From an uncultured Prevotellaceae bacterium (GTDB lineage Bacteria; Bacteroidota; Bacteroidia; Bacteroidales; Bacteroidaceae), in the NCBI GenBank assembly GCA_900318915.1, contig ONMI01000016.1, positions 1 to 35,677 on the forward strand: 35,677 nt of DNA, written 5' to 3'. The number at the start of each line of letters is the position of its first letter. Position 1 is the stretch's first letter. A program made the position numbers and the translations under genes. This document shows positions 1 to 35,378 of the stretch, in pieces. The notes beneath the pieces are model-generated. The model worked only from the letters and a program-made list of their open reading frames with translations. It was not told the DNA's origin and ran no database searches.

Positions 1-539
1 GGGCGCAGCCAGTGGAACGAACGGTCATACTCATCGGCCTCTATCACCACATAGTCGCTGTCGCTCAGGAGATAGTTGGTGCCGTAGTTTTTCAGAATGC
101 CTCCCAGAAAGGCGTTGCAGCCCAGGTGGCTGTTGTGCATGATGTGGGCGCACATCGACGAGGTAGTGGTCTTGCCGTGTGTGCCTGCCACGCAGAGTCC
201 GCGGTGCGAGCGGGTCAGCGTGCCGAGCACTTGGGCGCGTTTCTGCACTTCGAAACCGCCCTCTCTGAACCAGTTCAGCTCTTGGTGTGTGGCCGGCACG
301 GCCGGGGTGTATATCACCAGGGTCGATTTGGGGTCCCGGCACGGTTCTGGTATGCGCTGTGTGTCGTCTTCGTAGTGTATCTCGGCGCCTTCCTCCTCCA
401 GTTTGAGGGTGAGCGGAGTGGCTGTCTTGTCGTATCCTGCCACAAATACTTGCTTGTAGAGGAAGAATCGTGCGATGGCGCTCATGCCGATGCCGCCCAC
501 GCCGATAAAATAGACTGCCTTTATATCGTTCAGGTTCAT
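1..539 (-). CDS. murC: UDP-N-acetylmuramate--L-alanine ligase, N-terminal part
   Basis: MurC adds L-alanine to UDP-MurNAc in the cytoplasm, the first amino acid step of the peptidoglycan stem peptide. Only the first 179 codons lie in the window; the gene continues past the left edge. The reading starts at an ATG at 537-539 and opens with a Rossmann-type stretch (FIGVGGIGMS, residues 11-20). The ATP-binding P-loop GTHGKTTT is at residues 119-126 and the EADEYDRSF segment typical of MurC is near 167. It follows murG with a 12-base gap, so it is co-transcribed as the next dcw gene. Nothing looks broken in the visible part. Confidence 0.96.
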   Translation of the reverse strand, partial: MNLNDIKAVYFIGVGGIGMSAIARFFLYKQVFVAGYDKTATPLTLKLEEEGAEIHYEDDTQRIPEPCRDPKSTLVIYTPAVPATHQELNWFREGGFEVQKRAQVLGTLTRSHRGLCVAGTHGKTTTSSMCAHIMHNSHLGCNAFLGGILKNYGTNYLLSDSDYVVIEADEYDRSFHWLR

Positions 540-27641: not shown

Positions 27642-27710
27642 CGCTTAGTTGTACAGAAAAGTTAGGTTTCGGCCTTTCTGTCTTCGTGATTTTGAAAATT
27701 GTATTTTTAT

Positions 27711-29072
27711 ATGTCGCAGAAAGAAAGAGCCAATTTTGGCAGTAAGATAGGTGTAGTGCTGGCAACCGCCGGTTCGGCCGTAGGCTTGGGCAACGTGTGG
27801 CGTTTCCCCTATATGACGGGCGAGAATGGCGGAGCCGTATTCATCATCCTTTACCTGGCCTGTGTGTTGTTCCTGGGCATTCCCTGCATGATAGGCGAGT
27901 TTATCATTGGCCGTCGGGGGGCCTCCAATACCTTCCGTGCCTACGACAAGGTGTCGGGGGGTAGCGGATGGAAGTTCGTGGGACTGCTCTCCGTGATCAC
28001 CGGTTTTCTCATCACCGGTTATTACTGCGTGGTTTCCGGTTGGTGCGTGCAGTATGTCTACGGCTCTGTGGTGGGCGAACTGAGTGGCGACGCCGCCTAT
28101 GTGGAGCAGTATTTCAGCGATTTTTCCAGTTCGCCGTGGCGACCGGTCGTCTGGACGGTGGTAGTGCTGCTCATCACCCATTTTGTCATTGTGCGGGGCG
28201 TGCGCGACGGCATTGAGAAAGCATCCAAGCTGCTCATGCCTCTGCTCTTTATCCTGCTGCTGGTTATTGTGGTGGCCTCCTGCCTGCTGCCGGGCGGTTC
28301 AAAGGGCATCTCTTTCCTCTTCTATCCTGACTTTTCCAAACTCAACAGCGATGTCTTCCTGGGCGCTTTGGGTCAGGCTTTCTATTCGCTCAGTTTGGCC
28401 ATGGGCTGTGTGTGCACCTTCGCTTCTTATTTCAGCCGTGAGACCCATCTCACCAAGTCGGCCGCGCAGGTCTGTGTGGTCGACTGTCTGGTGGCCATTC
28501 TGGCTGGCCTGATGATATTCCCGGCAGCCTTTTCGGTGGGCATCAGTCCCGATTCGGGTGCTTCGTTGGTGTTCATCACCCTGCCCAATGTGTTTCAGCA
28601 GGCCTTTGCCGACTTGCCTGTGCTGGGGCGGGTCATCTCGTTCGGCTTTTATGCCCTGCTCACCCTGGCTGCTCTCACCTCGCTTATCTCCCTGCATGAG
28701 GTGAGCACCGCCTTCCTGCACGAGGAACTCAATTGGTCGCGCGGCAAGGGTGCTGCCTTCGTCACGGGCGCCTGTATTGTCATCGGCACGTTCTGCTCGC
28801 TCTCTTTGGGCGGCAGCGGCAGTCTGACGTTCCTGGGCCGTTCGCTTTTCGACTGGTTCGATTTTATCACGGGCCAGATATTCCTGCCTGTGGGCGGATT
28901 CCTCACCTGCATCTTCCTCGGATGGTTTGTGCCCCGTTCGCTGCTGCGCGACGAGTATACCAACGGCGGCACCCTGCGCGGCACCTACTTCGGCGTGTTC
29001 TTCTTTTTGGTGCGCTATGTCTGTCCACTGAGCATCCTGCTCATCTTCCTCAATCAGTTAGGTGTCATCTAA
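27711..29072 (+). CDS. Sodium-dependent transporter, neurotransmitter:sodium symporter family (copy 1)
   Basis: This 453-residue multi-pass protein belongs to the NSS (SNF) family, Na+-coupled amino acid or amine importers with a LeuT fold. The first helix carries the signature GLGNVWRFP at 25-33, which lines the substrate and sodium sites. The length suits the 11-helix bacterial subgroup rather than the 12-helix form. The ATG at 27711 is preferred over an in-frame TTG at 27699 because the family N terminus (ERANFGSKIG) begins right after it. A paralogue follows after 12 bases. Substrate unknown; amino acids are most likely. Confidence 0.92.
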   Translation: MSQKERANFGSKIGVVLATAGSAVGLGNVWRFPYMTGENGGAVFIILYLACVLFLGIPCMIGEFIIGRRGASNTFRAYDKVSGGSGWKFVGLLSVITGFLITGYYCVVSGWCVQYVYGSVVGELSGDAAYVEQYFSDFSSSPWRPVVWTVVVLLITHFVIVRGVRDGIEKASKLLMPLLFILLLVIVVASCLLPGGSKGISFLFYPDFSKLNSDVFLGALGQAFYSLSLAMGCVCTFASYFSRETHLTKSAAQVCVVDCLVAILAGLMIFPAAFSVGISPDSGASLVFITLPNVFQQAFADLPVLGRVISFGFYALLTLAALTSLISLHEVSTAFLHEELNWSRGKGAAFVTGACIVIGTFCSLSLGGSGSLTFLGRSLFDWFDFITGQIFLPVGGFLTCIFLGWFVPRSLLRDEYTNGGTLRGTYFGVFFFLVRYVCPLSILLIFLNQLGVI

Positions 29073-29084
29073 ACGGTTGTGACT

Positions 29085-30449
29085 ATGAGTGAACATCATC
29101 ACAGAGGTTCTTTCGGCAGTAAGTTAGGCATCATTCTGGCCACGGCGGGCTCAGCGGTGGGCTTGGGCAATATATGGCGCTTCCCGTATATGACGGGGCA
29201 AAACGGCGGTGCGGCGTTTATCGTGATATACCTGGTGTGTGTGTTCTTGCTTGGTGTGCCCGGCATGGTGGCCGAGTTTGTGGTGGGCCGTCATGCCTCG
29301 TCCAATGCGGCACGCGCCTACAGCCTGCTGGCCAAAGGAACCCCTTGGCGGGTGATAGGCTATATAGGCGTGTTCACCTCCATGATTATACTCGGGTTCT
29401 ATGCTGTGGTGGCAGGGTGGTGCCTGCAGTACCTGATGGTCAGTCTGCTCGGACAGTTGCACGGTGATGCCGCTTTTGTGGCCGACTATTTCACCCGTTT
29501 CTCCTCCCATCCGCTTATTCCGGTGGGCTGGGCCTTGCTGTTCATTCTGCTCACCCATTTCGTAGTGGTGAGGGGAGTCAGAGAGGGCATAGAGCGCACT
29601 TCCAAGGTGCTCATGCCGCTGTTGCTGGTGCTGCTGGTGCTCTTGGTCGTGGCCGCCTGCATGCTGCCCGGTTCGTCCAAGGGCGTGGAGTTTCTGCTGA
29701 AGCCCGATTTCGGCAAGCTCTCGGGCGGTGTCTTCCTGGAGGCGCTTGGCCAGGCCTTCTTCTCGCTGAGCCTCGGCACAGCGTGTCTTTGCACCTATGC
29801 CTCTTATTTCGGCCGCGATACTAATCTGCTGGGTTCCGCCGTCAAGATATCCCTGCTCGACAGTCTGATAGCCATTCTGGCCGGCCTGATGATTTTTCCC
29901 GCAGCTTTCTCAGTGGGAGTGAATCCCGATTCCGGTCCGTCGCTCATCTTCATCACGCTGCCCAATGTGTTTCAGGAGGCTTTCCAGAGCGTTCCCGCGG
30001 TGGGTTATGTGGTGTCGGTGGCTTTCTATGCCCTGCTGGCCTTGGCCGCCCTCACCTCTACCATCTCCATGCACGAGATAGGCACTTCCTTCTTCCATGA
30101 GGAACTGAAAGTGTCGCGTCAGAAGGGGGGCTGGGTGGTCACCTTGATATGCTGTGTCATTGCGGTGCTCTGCTCGCTCTCGGTGGGGGCTATTCCCGCG
30201 CTCCGTGTGAAGGGCATGACGGTGCTCGACTTCTGCGACTCACTCACAGCCGATTACCTCCTGCCTCTTGGGGCTTTCCTCACTTGTCTCTTTGTAGGGT
30301 GGTATGTGCCCCGCCGATTGGTGAGCGACCAGTTCACCAACTGGGGAACCCTGTCGGGACGCCTGTTGCCCGTTTTCCTGTTCTTTGTGCGCTTTGTGTG
30401 CCCGGTCTGCATCGCCTGTGTGTTCCTGCATCAGTTGGGCGTCATCTGA
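29085..30449 (+). CDS. Sodium-dependent transporter, neurotransmitter:sodium symporter family (copy 2)
   Basis: This 454-residue protein is closely similar along its whole length to the gene just upstream, so the pair is a tandem duplication. The NSS signature GLGNIWRFP is at 26-34. The ATG at 29085 (MSEHHHRGSFGSKLG) is preferred over an in-frame GTG at 29079. Differences are spread through the protein rather than clustered, which suggests an old duplication with separate substrates. The helix-hairpin-helix gene follows after 15 bases. Confidence 0.92.
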   Translation: MSEHHHRGSFGSKLGIILATAGSAVGLGNIWRFPYMTGQNGGAAFIVIYLVCVFLLGVPGMVAEFVVGRHASSNAARAYSLLAKGTPWRVIGYIGVFTSMIILGFYAVVAGWCLQYLMVSLLGQLHGDAAFVADYFTRFSSHPLIPVGWALLFILLTHFVVVRGVREGIERTSKVLMPLLLVLLVLLVVAACMLPGSSKGVEFLLKPDFGKLSGGVFLEALGQAFFSLSLGTACLCTYASYFGRDTNLLGSAVKISLLDSLIAILAGLMIFPAAFSVGVNPDSGPSLIFITLPNVFQEAFQSVPAVGYVVSVAFYALLALAALTSTISMHEIGTSFFHEELKVSRQKGGWVVTLICCVIAVLCSLSVGAIPALRVKGMTVLDFCDSLTADYLLPLGAFLTCLFVGWYVPRRLVSDQFTNWGTLSGRLLPVFLFFVRFVCPVCIACVFLHQLGVI

Positions 30450-31991: not shown

Positions 31992-31999
31992 TAATTTTG
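31992..31999 (+). promoter_or_regulatory. Candidate -7 box of the small lipoprotein gene
   Basis: The sequence TAATTTTG matches TAnnTTTG. The distance to the chosen ATG at 32084 is 84 bases, so a leader of about 80 bases is predicted. It contains a GGGAGGAG stretch (about 32054-32061) but nothing recognised as a riboswitch. Confidence 0.5.
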
Positions 32000-32083
32000 C
32001 ATAAGAATAAGCCGTATCCCGTCTGTGCGAGCCCATTTGAGCAGTGCTCTGCCGGGAGGAGTTGTAGTGTAAAGAATAGGTTA

Positions 32084-32368
32084 ATGACTGGAAAAATAAT
32101 TTGTGCTGTGGTGGCACTTTTGCTGCTTGTCTCCTGCAAAGAGTTGATGAGCGACATCATCTCTTCTGCAGTCGAGACAGAAGTGGACGCTGTGAAGCAG
32201 GGCTTGGAGGGTATCAACAATGTCTCCAAGGCCGACAAGCAGGCTGCCAAGGAACGAGATGAACTCAAGAAGAAGGGCATTTGTCCAGTCTGTCGGGGTA
32301 AGGGCATGACCATCGACGGCCGTTACACCTGTGGCTCCTGCAACGGCACAGGAAAAGTTCAGAAGTAG
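32084..32368 (+). CDS. Small lipoprotein with DnaJ-type CxxCxGxG motifs
   Basis: The 94-residue product has a lipoprotein signal peptide ending LLVSC (Cys18 lipidated), an amphipathic charged helix (about 25-64) and a C-terminal Cys-rich segment with CPVCRGKG at 67-74 and CGSCNGTG at 83-90. Those are two copies of the CxxCxGxG unit of the DnaJ zinc domain, enough for one zinc site. There is no J domain. The ATG at 32084 is chosen because it places a standard signal peptide at the N terminus; a longer in-frame reading to 31997 would add a Cys-rich non-signal stretch and run into the promoter. The function is unknown. It faces the anti-sigma/barrel gene across a hairpin. Confidence 0.75.
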   Translation: MTGKIICAVVALLLLVSCKELMSDIISSAVETEVDAVKQGLEGINNVSKADKQAAKERDELKKKGICPVCRGKGMTIDGRYTCGSCNGTGKVQK

Positions 32369-32384
32369 CGGTACTGCCGCTACT
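32364..32384. terminator. Hairpin between convergent genes, possible bidirectional terminator
   Basis: AGTAGCGG at 32364-32371 pairs with CCGCTACT at 32377-32384 around a 5-base loop, giving an 8-bp GC-containing stem. It spans the stop codon of the lipoprotein gene and reaches into the 3' end of the convergent gene. The downstream T content is modest on both sides, so termination strength is uncertain. Confidence 0.45.
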
Positions 32385-33705
32385 CGCTCTTGTTGATTTG
32401 GAACCTCATTCCCAAGTTCAGGTTGAAGCTGAATGGTTTCTCTTGGTAGAAGGTGGATACGCTGCTGTGGTTGTCGAAGTGGTAGGCCACGCCCGGTTCG
32501 GCATAGATGCTGAAAGCGGGGGTGAACCTGTATTCCGCTCCTGCAGCTCCGTTGAGGGAGAACTGCAGCGGGCGGATGCTTACTTTTTCTTTGTAGTCAG
32601 CGTTGGTGCGGTTGCCTTTCACCATTTTCTCCAGGGTGGCTCCGGCCGAGGCGTAGACCTGGAAGTGGCTGTTGCTCCAAAGTAGGTAGCCCACATTGAC
32701 GGGCACACCCACATAATTGAGTTCTTGCTTCATGTCGTAGCTTACGCCGTTGGAGATGCGTGTAAGGTCGGCGGTGAGGCGTGTGTAGGCCAGTCCGGCC
32801 TCTATGCTCCACCGTCTGCTGAGTTGATAGCGCAGCGACAGACCGATGCGCAGGGGCTGGTGATGGTTGTAATGCTCCTCAATCGGTGTGAACTGGTTGA
32901 AGGAGGATGGGTCAAATTCGTTGTACATCAGGCTGCTGTCATAGGGTCCCATAGGACTGGCATTGTTCATGACCGGCGTGGTGGAACTGAAGCTGCTGAT
33001 GCCGGTCATAGGGTTTGAGAGGTAGGCCTGTGCCGAGAGCCGGCTGTCGGTCGCTGTGGCGGCGTATAGGGTGGGCGACTGTTCTATGCCGGCAGGATAA
33101 TTGTTGGTAGGTCGGTGCGTGTCCTTTTGGGGTGAAGAGGGTTTCTCTTCTGGTTTGTCCGTTTCTTTTTCGGTGTCATACTCTTGGGCTGTCACTGCAC
33201 TGTCAGAGGCTTGTTCCGGTGAGGACGTTGCGTCGCCTGCCGATGATGGAACATTGTTTTCTGCCACTGTCTTCCGGAGACTTCCCGTTGACTGCTTGCC
33301 GTAGGTGCCCTGTCTTGTCCTGTCGGTATAATCTTCATACTGGGCGACAACAGGTTCTGCGGGTTCATCCGTTACCATTTCGTTCGGCTCTTTCTTCGCC
33401 GTTTCGGATGGCTCGCCTGTTGTTGGGTGGTTGGCTGCGACGGATGTCGTGGCGGGTTGGGAACCGGTGTCGGTCTGTGCCGTCTGTTGCTCGCCTGCTT
33501 GTTGTTCTGATCTCATGAGCATCCACCCTAACCCCGCCGCAAGCACTACGGCTGCTGCGGTTGCTGTCAGCCGGCCCCATATAGCGGCAGGCCTTGCCTT
33601 TGGAGCGGGCAAAGCCTTCTCCAACTCCGTCCACGAGATGTCGGGAGCTGGCCGCCGGTAGTCGGCCAGCTTCTGCTGCATTTCCTTTCTTGTCTTTTCT
33701 TTCAT
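32380..33705 (-). CDS. Dma-type dual membrane-spanning anti-sigma factor with C-terminal outer membrane barrel
   Basis: This 441-residue protein has an unusual layout. Residues 1-40 are a cytoplasmic, charged segment suited to sigma binding; 42-64 is a single inner-membrane helix; about 66-280 is a low-complexity linker rich in Thr, Ser, Pro, Glu, Gln and Lys; and 283-441 alternates as an outer-membrane beta-barrel (for example LRIGLSLRYQLSRRWSIEAG, ending FSFNLNLGMRFQINKSE). This matches the Dma family of B. thetaiotaomicron, reported to span both membranes and to control an ECF21 sigma factor and outer membrane vesiculation. The start overlaps the sigma gene's end by 4 bases, strong support for a functional pair. 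The sigma-binding role here is inferred; the barrel and helix are read from sequence pattern only. Confidence 0.82.
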   Translation of the reverse strand: MKEKTRKEMQQKLADYRRPAPDISWTELEKALPAPKARPAAIWGRLTATAAAVVLAAGLGWMLMRSEQQAGEQQTAQTDTGSQPATTSVAANHPTTGEPSETAKKEPNEMVTDEPAEPVVAQYEDYTDRTRQGTYGKQSTGSLRKTVAENNVPSSAGDATSSPEQASDSAVTAQEYDTEKETDKPEEKPSSPQKDTHRPTNNYPAGIEQSPTLYAATATDSRLSAQAYLSNPMTGISSFSSTTPVMNNASPMGPYDSSLMYNEFDPSSFNQFTPIEEHYNHHQPLRIGLSLRYQLSRRWSIEAGLAYTRLTADLTRISNGVSYDMKQELNYVGVPVNVGYLLWSNSHFQVYASAGATLEKMVKGNRTNADYKEKVSIRPLQFSLNGAAGAEYRFTPAFSIYAEPGVAYHFDNHSSVSTFYQEKPFSFNLNLGMRFQINKSE

Positions 33706-34277
33706 CGTGGTGGCTGTTTTGATTGGTAGTAGGCTTTAATCTTTTTCGCAAGCAGGTTCTTGGCTCTGCTGAACTGAGAACAGGAGGTACCTGTCTTGAT
33801 GCCGAGCAGCTGTGCTATCTCCTGATGGCTCTTGTTTTCAAAGACATAGAGGTTGAACACGGAGCGGTAGCCAGCGGGCAGCTCGCGTATCATCTGGTGT
33901 AACACTTCCGGCGGAAGGTCGCTAATGCTGGGGTCTTCGTCTTCTTCCACTTCATCGGCCACGTCCCGGTCTAAAGGGGTGAACTCTGTATGGTGTTTTT
34001 TGCGGAGGAACCGTAATGACTGGTTCACTGCTGTCTTTGTGGCCCATGCCTGCAGAGATCCCGCGCCGCGGTATTGGAAGTCGCGGATGTGTGAGATGAT
34101 GTTCACCATCGCATCCTGAAACACGTCTTTCAGGTCTTCATCATCGGCGATGTAGCGGGCGCAGACCCCCGCCAGGTAGTCGGCGTAGAGGGTATAGAAG
34201 TCTTTCAGAGCGGCATTTTCGCCGCTCTGCAGACGTCTGGCCAGGCGTTCTTCTTTATCGCCGATGAAAAATCGCAC
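33702..34277 (-). CDS. ECF RNA polymerase sigma factor, probable ECF21/Das-type
   Basis: This 191-residue protein is a two-domain extracytoplasmic-function sigma factor. Region 2 (about 22-95) has the core-binding and -10 recognition helix pattern DLKDVFQDAMVNIISHI followed by GSLQAWATKTAVNQSLRFLRKK. An acidic linker (about 106-120, EVEEDEDPS) leads to region 4 (about 122-181), with ELPAGYRSVFNLYVFEN and the helix-turn-helix SHQEIAQLLGIKTGTSCSQFSRAK for -35 contact, cited here by its ends. It starts 25 bases after the NigD-like gene and overlaps the anti-sigma/barrel gene by 4 bases. It is expected to be held inactive by that partner. The ECF21 assignment rests on context. Confidence 0.9.
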   Translation of the reverse strand: MRFFIGDKEERLARRLQSGENAALKDFYTLYADYLAGVCARYIADDEDLKDVFQDAMVNIISHIRDFQYRGAGSLQAWATKTAVNQSLRFLRKKHHTEFTPLDRDVADEVEEDEDPSISDLPPEVLHQMIRELPAGYRSVFNLYVFENKSHQEIAQLLGIKTGTSCSQFSRAKNLLAKKIKAYYQSKQPPR

Positions 34278-34302
34278 GTGGGTTGTTGCTTCTCGATACT
34301 AC

Positions 34303-35067
34303 TCAGTGTCCTTCCGATGTGCTCGACACGTTGCCTTTGTTTTGGCGGAATTTGAACTGCGTCGTTTTGGTGCCGGAGTAAGATTTCCACTCCAGGGTCA
34401 GTGTGGCATAGTCCTGGTCGCTGGGTGCCATCATCCAGTCGGCCAGTTTGAAGGCTACAAGGGCATCGCCCGTTTGTCCCTCGGTGTCGCCTTGGGCATC
34501 GTGGTAGAGGGTGAAATAATAGGGGGTGTTCACGTCTGTGCGGTGCACCAGGTTCACTCTGTGTTCAGCCTTTCCTCCCCAGCGGGTGCGGAAGCGCAGC
34601 GTCAGGTAGCCGTCTTCGGCCACCGTCGTCCAATCGTCGACTATCTCCAGCGGGTCGTCTCCGTATATCTGCAGGTTCTCCTCCGCACTGTACATGCCTT
34701 CCACCACCGGCTTGGTGAGGATGGAGTCTATCCAGTTGACGAAGACACAGGGCATGCCCGAAGTGGCACTGCCTTTCTCAATATCCGACGGCGTGGCTTG
34801 GCGGTAGTTGACCAGTGCCCTTACTTCCTTGGTGCCGAAGGGCGACTGCCGCAAATTGACGGGCCAGAGGGTGGTGCTGTCGTTGAGCTGCATGATGAAG
34901 CCTGTGTTGTCGGCATTCGGCTTTACGGTTACCAGTGCATTGGGTTGGTCAATTGGGCAAATGGCCAGATAGTCGTCGTCATAGTCGTCGTCGCTCAGGC
35001 AACTTTGCAGGAACAGAATCGGGGCCATCAAGGTGAGACCTATGAAAAGGGAATGAATTCGTTTCAT
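34303..35067 (-). CDS. NigD-like lipoprotein with probable surface-export signal
   Basis: This 254-residue protein has a lipoprotein signal peptide ending FLQSC (Cys23 lipidated). Directly after the Cys comes LSDDDYDDDY. A Ser followed by three acidic residues at this place matches the lipoprotein export signal S(D/E)3 described in Bacteroides for surface-exposed, vesicle-enriched lipoproteins. The mature part resembles NigD-like proteins, with an N-terminal small beta domain and a C-terminal beta-sandwich. It is the first gene of the sigma/anti-sigma operon and has a -7 box at 35100-35107. The molecular role is unknown; a surface sensor input or an effector of the sigma regulon is an inference. 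Confidence 0.8.
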   Translation of the reverse strand: MKRIHSLFIGLTLMAPILFLQSCLSDDDYDDDYLAICPIDQPNALVTVKPNADNTGFIMQLNDSTTLWPVNLRQSPFGTKEVRALVNYRQATPSDIEKGSATSGMPCVFVNWIDSILTKPVVEGMYSAEENLQIYGDDPLEIVDDWTTVAEDGYLTLRFRTRWGGKAEHRVNLVHRTDVNTPYYFTLYHDAQGDTEGQTGDALVAFKLADWMMAPSDQDYATLTLEWKSYSGTKTTQFKFRQNKGNVSSTSEGH

Positions 35068-35099
35068 AATTTTTTTTTAGCATTTACCCTTATAAATCG

Positions 35100-35107
35100 C
35101 AAAAGTA
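35100..35107 (-). promoter_or_regulatory. Candidate -7 box of the NigD-sigma-anti-sigma operon
   Basis: The minus strand reads TACTTTTG, matching TAnnTTTG, 32 bases before the NigD-like start codon. This is the housekeeping-type box; whether the ECF factor also drives its own operon cannot be decided from one site. Confidence 0.5.
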
Positions 35108-35114
35108 ACAATTC

Positions 35115-35378
35115 TTGCATGCCTGTCCAAAAAAAGTTTTAGGCGCTTATGCAAAAAAGGGTGCATCATCTTGTGTGCTTTTGGCCGACCTCGATATCGA
35201 GAAGGCTGGTGTCGACCTGCTCTATAAGTGCTGCGAAGGTCTCATCAACGACCCCACCACCTATGAGATCATGATTGCCTATCTGAAGGACGAGGAAGAG
35301 GATCTCTACTGGAGCCAGGGCGCTCTGGAGCTGATAGAGAAGATAGGTCAGCAGAACTGGCTTTTCACCCAGGATTAA
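35115..35378 (+). pseudogene. Probable 3' remnant of a ferritin-like (bacterioferritin-type) gene
   Basis: From about 35184 to the stop, the translation (ADLDIEKAG ... YLKDEEEDLYWSQGALELIEKIGQQN, shown by its ends) resembles the last two helices of bacterioferritin-like proteins, with the typical DEEE-x2-YW and LIEKIG pattern of the final helix. A complete protein would need roughly 90 more residues at the N terminus, but the sequence upstream is AT-rich, unrelated, and runs into the promoter of the divergent lipoprotein gene. The frame opens only with a weak TTG at 35115 (other GTG/TTG codons at 35175 and 35181), and no ATG begins it. A decayed 5'-deleted gene fits best; a short expressed protein is possible. 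Confidence 0.5.

What the first reader, a model, noticed from the sequence alone, without database searches (positions are those of the whole stretch)
32380..35107. NigD lipoprotein / ECF sigma / dual-membrane anti-sigma operon, a probable Dma-Das vesiculation regulator
Three minus-strand genes in a row encode a surface-signal lipoprotein, an ECF sigma factor and a fusion of anti-sigma head, inner-membrane helix, ~215-residue linker and outer-membrane barrel. One polypeptide seems able to reach from cytoplasm to outer membrane and could report on envelope spacing or barrel assembly. The 4-base overlap of sigma and anti-sigma genes supports pairing. The Dma family is known from B. thetaiotaomicron; what is new here is this locus, its linker composition and the NigD gene as leader of the operon.
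Basis: partly seen in the sequence, partly recalled or inferred. Interest (0 to 1): 0.85.

Follow-up and report, generated by a model that had tools for sequence, protein, structure and literature searches.

The report
Membrane-spanning stress regulator with NigD output
A bacterium of the Bacteroides family carries a three-gene operon in which one protein appears to reach from the cell interior to the outer membrane and to hold back a gene switch for its own operon and a surface lipoprotein; the system is known from Bacteroides, but relatives replace the lipoprotein by a serpin, which hints at what it is for.

Summary
The three minus-strand genes are real: nigD (35067-34303), an ECF sigma gene (34277-33702, GTG start) and a 441-residue anti-sigma/inner-membrane helix/tether/barrel gene (33705-32380) with a 4-base overlap. 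This is a diverged member of the published EcfO-Reo / Das1-Dma1 kind. The tether is about 155 residues, not 215.

New here, by computation: (1) a two-block promoter, TGCARKAWTT-N12/13-ATTTATA, recurs before these operons; the window copy (35119-35091) is the only match to a relaxed pattern in its 3.38-Mb genome. (2) The lipoprotein place is exchangeable. In 10 of 90 genomes with a match to the 441-residue protein a serpin lies within 3 kb of that match (0.19 expected). These 10 have one unlinked NigD domain each; 24 of 26 others examined have two or more.

Best reading: an autoregulated outer-membrane damage response whose product is a surface lipoprotein. Vesiculation is inferred from B. thetaiotaomicron only.

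The parts
35091..35119 (-). predicted ECF sigma promoter, TGCAAGAATT-N12-ATTTATA, 23 nt before the nigD ATG
   Evidence: only match in the window, none in 100 shuffles; only match to a relaxed pattern in the 3.38-Mb own genome, reversed-pattern control 0; top site in the window with weight matrices built without the window; recurs in related loci
34303..35067 (-). nigD: 254-aa NigD-family lipoprotein, lipobox LQSC followed by LSDDDYDDD (acidic, surface-export-like; that reading is recalled knowledge)
   Evidence: Pfam and NCBIfam matches over cut-off; lipobox
33702..34277 (-). ECF sigma factor, 191 aa, GTG start, 25 nt after nigD
   Evidence: Pfam regions 2 and 4; start supported by an ATG at the same place in relative G001; 47% identical to the P. 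vulgatus sigma at the matching locus
33571..33705 (-). residues 1-45 of the 441-aa protein: presumed sigma-binding head, with nearly invariant P21 and W25
   Evidence: alignment of 59 sequences; NCBIfam 'anti-sigma factor' match of 20.4 bits, far below its cut-off of 100, and covering residues 29-96
33511..33570 (-). residues 46-65: presumed inner-membrane helix
   Evidence: hydropathy maximum 1.85 at 46-64
33046..33510 (-). residues 66-220: presumably disordered periplasmic tether, T/A/E/S/P/Q-rich
   Evidence: composition; no strand-like windows
32380..33045 (-). residues 221-441 and stop: outer-membrane beta-barrel with a first loop of about 50 residues (about 231-283) and a beta-signal-like C-terminus (NLGMRFQI; motif recalled)
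   Evidence: Pfam OMP_b-brl, matched by 57 of 59 aligned members; strand periodicity; GxR plus hydrophobic near the end in 105 of 109 related frames, some from duplicate loci

Best explanation
The locus is an autoregulated outer-membrane damage switch of the EcfO-Reo / Das-Dma kind. At rest the head of the 441-residue protein holds the sigma factor at the inner membrane while its barrel sits in the outer membrane, joined by a tether of about 155 residues. When the barrel cannot be assembled, or the outer membrane or the barrel's surface loop is damaged, the hold is lost and the sigma factor is freed. It then transcribes from the promoter at 35119-35091: first nigD, then more sigma, then more anti-sigma to reset the switch. 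NigD goes to the cell surface as a protective or vesicle-promoting lipoprotein. Shown here by computation: gene order, domain matches, a conserved promoter-like motif, recurrence in relatives. Inferred: membrane topology, sigma holding, the release step, use of the motif by this sigma factor, surface display, and the effect of NigD.
For: Domain matches. The P. vulgatus pair at the matching place aligns with the window pair, the anti-sigma end to end, and that locus is the best hit of the window protein in the P. vulgatus genome (6.5e-39, next 1.1e-26). Promoter motif shared with related loci and found once in the own genome. nigD beside the pair in 57 of 76 counted pairs and, starting from NigD instead, beside a sigma gene in 6 of 14 other genomes with a hit, including the 4 closest, as leader. 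Literature: ecfO-reo is stated to be the most upregulated gene pair of P. vulgatus under BcpT or Bd-A, and EcfO drives three nigD genes (PMC13114119, passages); Bd-A (bacteroidetocin A) inhibits BamA, and the sigma gene rises 33-fold with BcpT (PMC9308784, passages); nigD1 is required for the vesicle increase of the dma1 mutant (PMC13088901, passages).
Against: No structure could be predicted. Orthology to EcfO is not clean: in the own genome the P. vulgatus sigma matches a second pair on contig C53 slightly better (50% against 47%), though its anti-sigma protein prefers the window. Covariation between head and sigma did not stand out. EcfO of B. fragilis is described as induced by prolonged oxygen exposure (PMC13114119) and as answering oxidative stress (PMC9308784), so outer-membrane damage may not be the only signal. 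The terms NigD and anti-sigma do not occur in the main text of the Bd-A paper (PMC8546649), so induction by Bd-A rests on the later paper's statement. The B. thetaiotaomicron proteins themselves were not retrieved. The genome is an unnamed 118-contig assembly, 85% complete. The consensus used was drawn by eye with the window in view; in two other genomes the relaxed pattern is noisy (P. vulgatus 6 matches against 1 control, B. faecalis 3 against 2). 19 of the 76 pairs have no nigD beside them.
Confidence: 0.82

Rival explanations
1. Vesiculation regulator proper: the main role is to set outer-membrane vesicle output, with NigD as the vesicle-inducing product. (The rivals here differ in emphasis or signal and are not all exclusive.)
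For: In B. thetaiotaomicron loss of dma1 raises vesicle production by relieving das1, and nigD1 is required (PMC13088901, sections and passages); the window NigD belongs to the NCBIfam family named after BT4005 and BT4719, BT_4005 being nigD1.
Against: Dma2 raises vesicles without raising nigD1; inducers in P. vulgatus are envelope toxins and the regulon gives partial protection; in relatives of the window a serpin stands in the same place, for which I know of no link to vesicles.
Confidence: 0.3
2. Barrel-assembly sensor: the barrel is a client of the BAM machinery that reports on itself; if it is not inserted, periplasmic proteases degrade it and free the sigma factor.
For: Bd-A, which inhibits BamA, is stated to induce ecfO-reo; two predicted periplasmic proteases rise under Bd-A (PMC8546649, passages); the C-terminus looks like a beta-signal.
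Against: BcpT, whose receptor is the lipid A core glycan, also induces, so assembly failure need not be the route; no protease site was tested.
Confidence: 0.35
3. Surface-attack sensor: the long, variable first loop (about 231-283) is exposed and its cutting or occupation by proteases, toxins or glycans releases the sigma factor.
For: The loop varies in length and sequence among ten aligned rows while the strands around it are conserved; serpin lipoproteins replace NigD in relatives.
Against: Exposure of the loop rests on a sequence-based barrel; no ligand or protease is known; the authors of PMC13088901 propose an unknown glycan as signal for Dma2.
Confidence: 0.25

Closest known systems
EcfO-Reo of Phocaeicola vulgatus and Bacteroides fragilis
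   Same: ECF sigma plus an anti-sigma protein described as spanning cytoplasm to surface; nigD next door in P. vulgatus ATCC 8482; the same kind of promoter motif before the sigma gene there (16 of 17)
   Different: 28% (anti-sigma) and 47% (sigma) identity; nigD head-to-head in P. vulgatus but leader of one operon here; -35 block TGCAAG here, TGCAGT there. No B. fragilis sequence was compared.
Das1-Dma1 and Das2-Dma2 of Bacteroides thetaiotaomicron
   Same: same four-part anatomy, adjacent sigma gene, nigD1 as output of the Dma1 pair (PMC13088901)
   Different: Dma2 is in an operon with BT_1557 (DUF4943), not NigD; sequences not compared here
Dma3 (sigma part and barrel in one protein)
   Same: the own genome has two such fusions, on C26 and C32
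   Different: the window has separate sigma and anti-sigma genes

Membership tests
Dma / Reo dual-membrane anti-sigma family | adjacent cognate ECF sigma gene | tested here: met
   4-base overlap; Pfam regions 2 and 4; that the two proteins bind is not tested
Dma / Reo dual-membrane anti-sigma family | single inner-membrane helix after an N-terminal head | tested here: met
   hydropathy peak 46-64; sequence only
Dma / Reo dual-membrane anti-sigma family | long disordered tether | tested here: met
   155 residues, T/A/E/S/P/Q-rich, no strand-like windows; sequence only
Dma / Reo dual-membrane anti-sigma family | C-terminal outer-membrane barrel | tested here: met
   Pfam OMP_b-brl 48.3 bits, cut-off 28.7; no structural model could be made
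Dma / Reo dual-membrane anti-sigma family | head binds and inhibits the sigma factor | tested here: inconclusive
Dma / Reo dual-membrane anti-sigma family | partner belongs to group ECF21 | not testable with these tools
   no ECF group models among the libraries used; the group name comes from PMC13088901
EcfO-Reo orthology | reciprocal best match with P. vulgatus | tested here: inconclusive
   P. vulgatus anti-sigma prefers the window, its sigma prefers C53; the window protein's best hit in P. vulgatus is that locus
EcfO-Reo orthology | a nigD gene under its promoter | tested here: met
   motif 23 nt before nigD; a prediction, not an expression result
Das1-Dma1 of B. thetaiotaomicron | sequence match to the founding proteins | not tested
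   their sequences were not among the loci returned; the founding paper is not held
NigD1/NigD2 lipoproteins | NCBIfam NF051862 above cut-off, lipobox | tested here: met
   184.8 bits against 60; LQSC
vesiculation regulator | loss of the anti-sigma raises vesicle yield | not testable with these tools
   needs a mutant

The most novel reading that the evidence does not exclude
Dual-membrane sigma/anti-sigma pairs are an exchangeable chassis for arming the cell surface: one sensor and one promoter type, with the output place filled by NigD in some lineages and by a serpin lipoprotein in others, one at a time. If so, NigD is probably a surface inhibitor, decoy or immunity protein against outer-membrane attack, vesiculation is a by-product, and the sensor may read proteolytic or toxin damage at the surface.
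Probability: 0.35. Interest if true: 0.72.

Novelty: new member of a known kind. Interest (0 to 1): 0.5.

Why it matters
NigD proteins are reported among the most highly expressed in the monocolonised mouse gut, yet their functions are not described (PMC13114119, passages). A serpin in the same operon place, in some cases behind the same promoter motif, is a direct clue: serpins are typically protease inhibitors, so NigD can be tested as an inhibitor or immunity protein. The result also extends a Bacteroides stress system to the window's lineage and gives a promoter motif with which to look for genes it may switch on.

Tried and rejected
Covariation between sigma and anti-sigma in 107 pairs did not single out the head: 12 of the top 50 column pairs involve its 42 of 355 columns, 33 the barrel's 162, 3 the helix, 2 the rest. 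PDB sequence searches gave no relative of the 441-aa protein (one hit, E 0.97) and, for NigD, five entries without a function in their names, one of them called 'putative toxin related protein'. Promoter sites before the 10 nigD genes of three named genomes are mixed: 4 score 14 or more of 17 (P. vulgatus 14; B. faecalis 15 and 17, the 17 being an unlinked nigD; B. salyersiae 14), 3 score 13, 3 score 11-12, and the own genome's second NigD scores 10; shuffled stretches reach 13 or more in 198 of 2000 and 14 or more in 29 of 2000. For P. vulgatus this is suggestive only. The relaxed pattern in P. vulgatus and B. faecalis is noisy. That the second pair on C53 is the true EcfO orthologue is not excluded: it has no nigD or serpin beside it in 10 kb and, by eye, only a -35-like block upstream. 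The 59-row alignment misplaced the first barrel strand; a smaller alignment corrected it. The hinge pattern of inhibitory serpins (recalled) was found by a simple pattern in 5 of 9 serpins and missed in 4 whose sequences look similar, so inhibition is not established.

Considered and rejected: a chance cluster (the gene set recurs); NigD as the signal (it is reported as an output); an entirely new class (the anatomy is published).
Full report
What is there. On the minus strand three genes follow one another: nigD 35067-34303 (254 aa), an ECF sigma gene 34277-33702 (191 aa, GTG) and a 441-aa gene 33705-32380 whose ATG overlaps the sigma stop by four bases. NigD has a lipobox followed by acidic residues (CLSDDDYDDD) and matches Pfam NigD_N and NigD_C and the NCBIfam NigD1/NigD2 family well above cut-off. 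The 441-aa protein has a short conserved head, one hydrophobic helix (46-64), a tether and an outer-membrane barrel (Pfam OMP_b-brl; 57 of the 59 aligned members match the same family). The NCBIfam anti-sigma model matches only weakly (20.4 bits against a cut-off of 100; 12 of 59 members at E up to 0.01).

Barrel and tether. In ten aligned rows (the window and nine relatives) the first strand (window 221-229) is followed by a loop that varies in length, about 50 residues here, and then by the conserved HHQP.R.G.S start of the second strand. Strand-like alternation is absent from 66-220 (0 of 145 windows) and common in 221-432 (69 of 211). The tether is thus about 155 residues; over 59 members the corresponding columns hold 112 to 193 residues, median 148 (that alignment is imperfect there). 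If the barrel is an ordinary one with its N-terminus in the periplasm, the 50-residue loop is exposed at the surface (inference).

Where it comes from. The window is one whole contig (C61, 35,677 bases) of a 3.38-Mb, 118-contig assembly, 85% complete. Its GC is 55%. In the sigma tree its well-supported clade (100/99) holds only unnamed members of its family; deep forks are unresolved.

Known kind. EcfO-Reo of P. vulgatus is described as a sigma factor with an anti-sigma protein spanning cytoplasm to cell surface; the pair is said to be the most upregulated under the toxins BcpT or Bd-A, and its regulon includes three nigD genes (PMC13114119 and PMC9308784, passages). EcfO of B. fragilis is described as induced by prolonged oxygen exposure. 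In B. thetaiotaomicron Dma family members have the four-part anatomy, Dma3 carries its sigma part in the same protein, and nigD1 is required for the vesicle increase of the dma1 mutant (PMC13088901: outline and abstract, sections 3 and 11, part 1 of 3 of section 4, passages). The founding papers (PNAS 2024; J Bacteriol 2013) are not held and are known to me here only through these. The P. vulgatus ATCC 8482 locus found here (L049) has nigD head-to-head with the sigma gene, then the anti-sigma gene. Its proteins align with the window's at 28% (anti-sigma, end to end), 47% (sigma) and 26% (NigD). That L049 is the ecfO-reo locus is my inference: the locus numbers of reo, ecfO and one regulon nigD in strain CL10 run in sequence, M0N98_03760 to 03762.

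Not a clean orthologue. In the own genome a second pair lies on C53 (sigma 41%, anti-sigma 33% to the window's). The P. vulgatus sigma matches C53 slightly better (50% against 47%) and its anti-sigma protein matches the window better. The genome also has sigma-barrel fusions like Dma3 on C26 and C32 and a barrel frame cut by the end of contig C30.

nigD linkage. From 80 loci of genome contigs fetched with a sigma alignment whose first row is a Phocaeicola-type sequence (the best 80 of 583 candidates, so weighted towards Bacteroides and Phocaeicola), 76 sigma frames with an anti-sigma frame within 200 bases were counted, two of them second pairs: 38 have nigD head-to-head, 19 have it as leader, 19 have none. 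Six loci were not counted by this rule (L084, L094, L095, L100, L103, L115); three of them have nigD head-to-head. In 29 unnamed family loci with 1.5-kb flanks the numbers are 13, 7 and 9; of the nine, G022 has nigD just outside the flank and three carry a serpin (below). Starting from NigD: 14 of 118 other genomes of the order gave a hit; in 6 of 14 the sigma gene lies beside nigD, 4 of them, the closest (39-51% identity), co-directional; in 7 neither gene shows in the stretch fetched and in 1 an anti-sigma-like frame only. So the leader arrangement is widespread and not new to this window.

Promoter. Upstream regions share TGCARKAWTT, 12-13 bases, ATTTATA. At least 14 of 17 positions with that spacing occur in 60 of 107 regions: 39 of 51 head-to-head, 13 of 27 leader (the window is one), 8 of 29 without nigD. 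Five of the loci are duplicates of others, several regions are cut by locus ends, and the consensus was drawn by eye with the window in view. Shuffled 310-base stretches reach 14 in 29 of 2000. As a fairer test, matrices built without the window rank its site first in the window: 11.9 against 8.7 for the next with 49 sites of loci without leader nigD, 29.4 against 14.0 with 12 leader-type sites (the sites were still chosen with the same seed). A relaxed pattern has one match in the own genome, this one, and none reversed. The EcfO motif of B. fragilis is said to be published (PMC7366714, passages) but I could not see it, so I do not claim that the motif is new.

Exchangeable output. Two of the three closest relatives (G044, G083) have a serpin lipoprotein just downstream of the anti-sigma gene. 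I then looked for serpins (PF00079) in all 90 genomes that had a match to the 441-aa protein (50, 40). Serpins occur in 31 (20 and 11), 65 hits, some of them pieces of one gene. Comparing places by hand, a serpin lies within 3 kb of the match in 10 genomes from 6 genera: leader in G021, G049, G023, G030; head-to-head in G122, G017; downstream in G044, G083, G100, G129. Random placement predicts 0.19 (genomes of one genus are not independent). The other 21 of the 31 do not: in three (G089, G120, G148) serpins lie about 7-9 kb away, and in the own genome a double serpin lies 2.3 kb before the C32 fusion gene (3.4 kb from the match), all uncounted. In G100 the contig begins inside the anti-sigma gene and in G083 inside the sigma gene, so those operons are seen in part. 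In the 80 genome-contig loci serpins appear in two: L089 (two in tandem, co-directional, after the anti-sigma gene) and L063 (one, opposite strand). Nine serpins, seven beside these pairs and two in L089, have a lipoprotein-type start; the leader serpins of G049, G023 and G030 show one by eye.

Same promoter. Of the eight serpin-linked loci whose upstream region is seen, six have the motif at 14 or more of 17: before the serpin in G021 (17), G049, G023 and G017 (14 each), before the sigma gene in G129 (17) and G044 (15); none at that threshold in G122 and G030.

One at a time. In 36 chosen genomes (the 10 with a linked serpin and 26 from the family loci), the 10 serpin-linked genomes have exactly one NigD_C match each, on another contig than the pair; 21 genomes have a linked nigD, 5 neither, and none both; 24 of the 26 without linked serpin have two or more matches (places compared by hand). 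Part of this contrast is ancestry, since Bacteroides-like genomes often have three or four; among ten others that I picked as nearest in kind (G001, G092, G150, G033, G005, G075, G015, G073, G087, G022) nine have two or more. Several genomes are incomplete. Inside the window's own sigma clade of five rows nigD occurs in L001 and L018 and a serpin in L019, L020 and L028, so at least two changes are needed on the drawn tree; its inner forks are weak (94/49, 96/56). Other lipoproteins stand before the pair elsewhere: in three Chryseobacterium loci (DUF4840 in the two scanned). B. thetaiotaomicron dma2 is in an operon with a DUF4943 gene (PMC13088901).

In print? Searches for serpin with anti-sigma and Bacteroid (two papers, both on cellulosomes), serpin with NigD (18 papers, 10 listed, none bacterial by title) and a mixed search (156 papers, 8 listed) showed no paper linking serpins to these pairs; the library holds only openly licensed papers, the founding papers are not in it, and supplements were not searched.

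Mechanism. Reported for relatives: induction by envelope toxins, nigD as output, vesicles needing nigD1. Predicted here: one promoter drives nigD, sigma and anti-sigma together. Inferred: the sigma factor is held by residues 1-45, released on barrel or surface damage, and NigD protects the surface. Vesiculation in this organism is untested.

Verdict. A real, diverged member of a known kind; the exchange of NigD for serpins is the part worth following.

Noticed in passing
G000 contig C32, locus L173 6-6226: A double serpin, a peptidase C13-like gene and a gene without Pfam match lie directly before a sigma-barrel fusion, all on one strand.
   Followed up: partly
G000 contig C53, locus L170 3958-5792: A second separate sigma/anti-sigma pair of the same kind, without nigD or serpin beside it in the 10 kb fetched.
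   Followed up: partly
G000 contig C26, locus L172 5062-6747: Sigma, helix, tether and barrel in one protein, like Dma3.
   Followed up: no
window 35115-35378 (+): An 87-aa frame with a weak match, below cut-off, to the C-terminal part of ferritin-like domains (E 0.0094); it starts inside the nigD promoter region and may be a remnant.
   Followed up: no
window 31997-32368 (+): Convergent small lipoprotein-like gene with DnaJ-type CXXCXGXG motifs, below Pfam cut-offs.
   Followed up: no
window 27699-30449 (+): Two tandem sodium:neurotransmitter symporter family genes.
   Followed up: no
loci L107, L111, L120 (Chryseobacterium): A lipoprotein, DUF4840 in the two scanned (L107, L111), stands as leader before the sigma/anti-sigma pair.
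   Followed up: partly
locus L089 4558-7171 (Tannerellaceae): Two similar tandem serpin lipoproteins directly after the anti-sigma gene (the first also scanned).
   Followed up: partly
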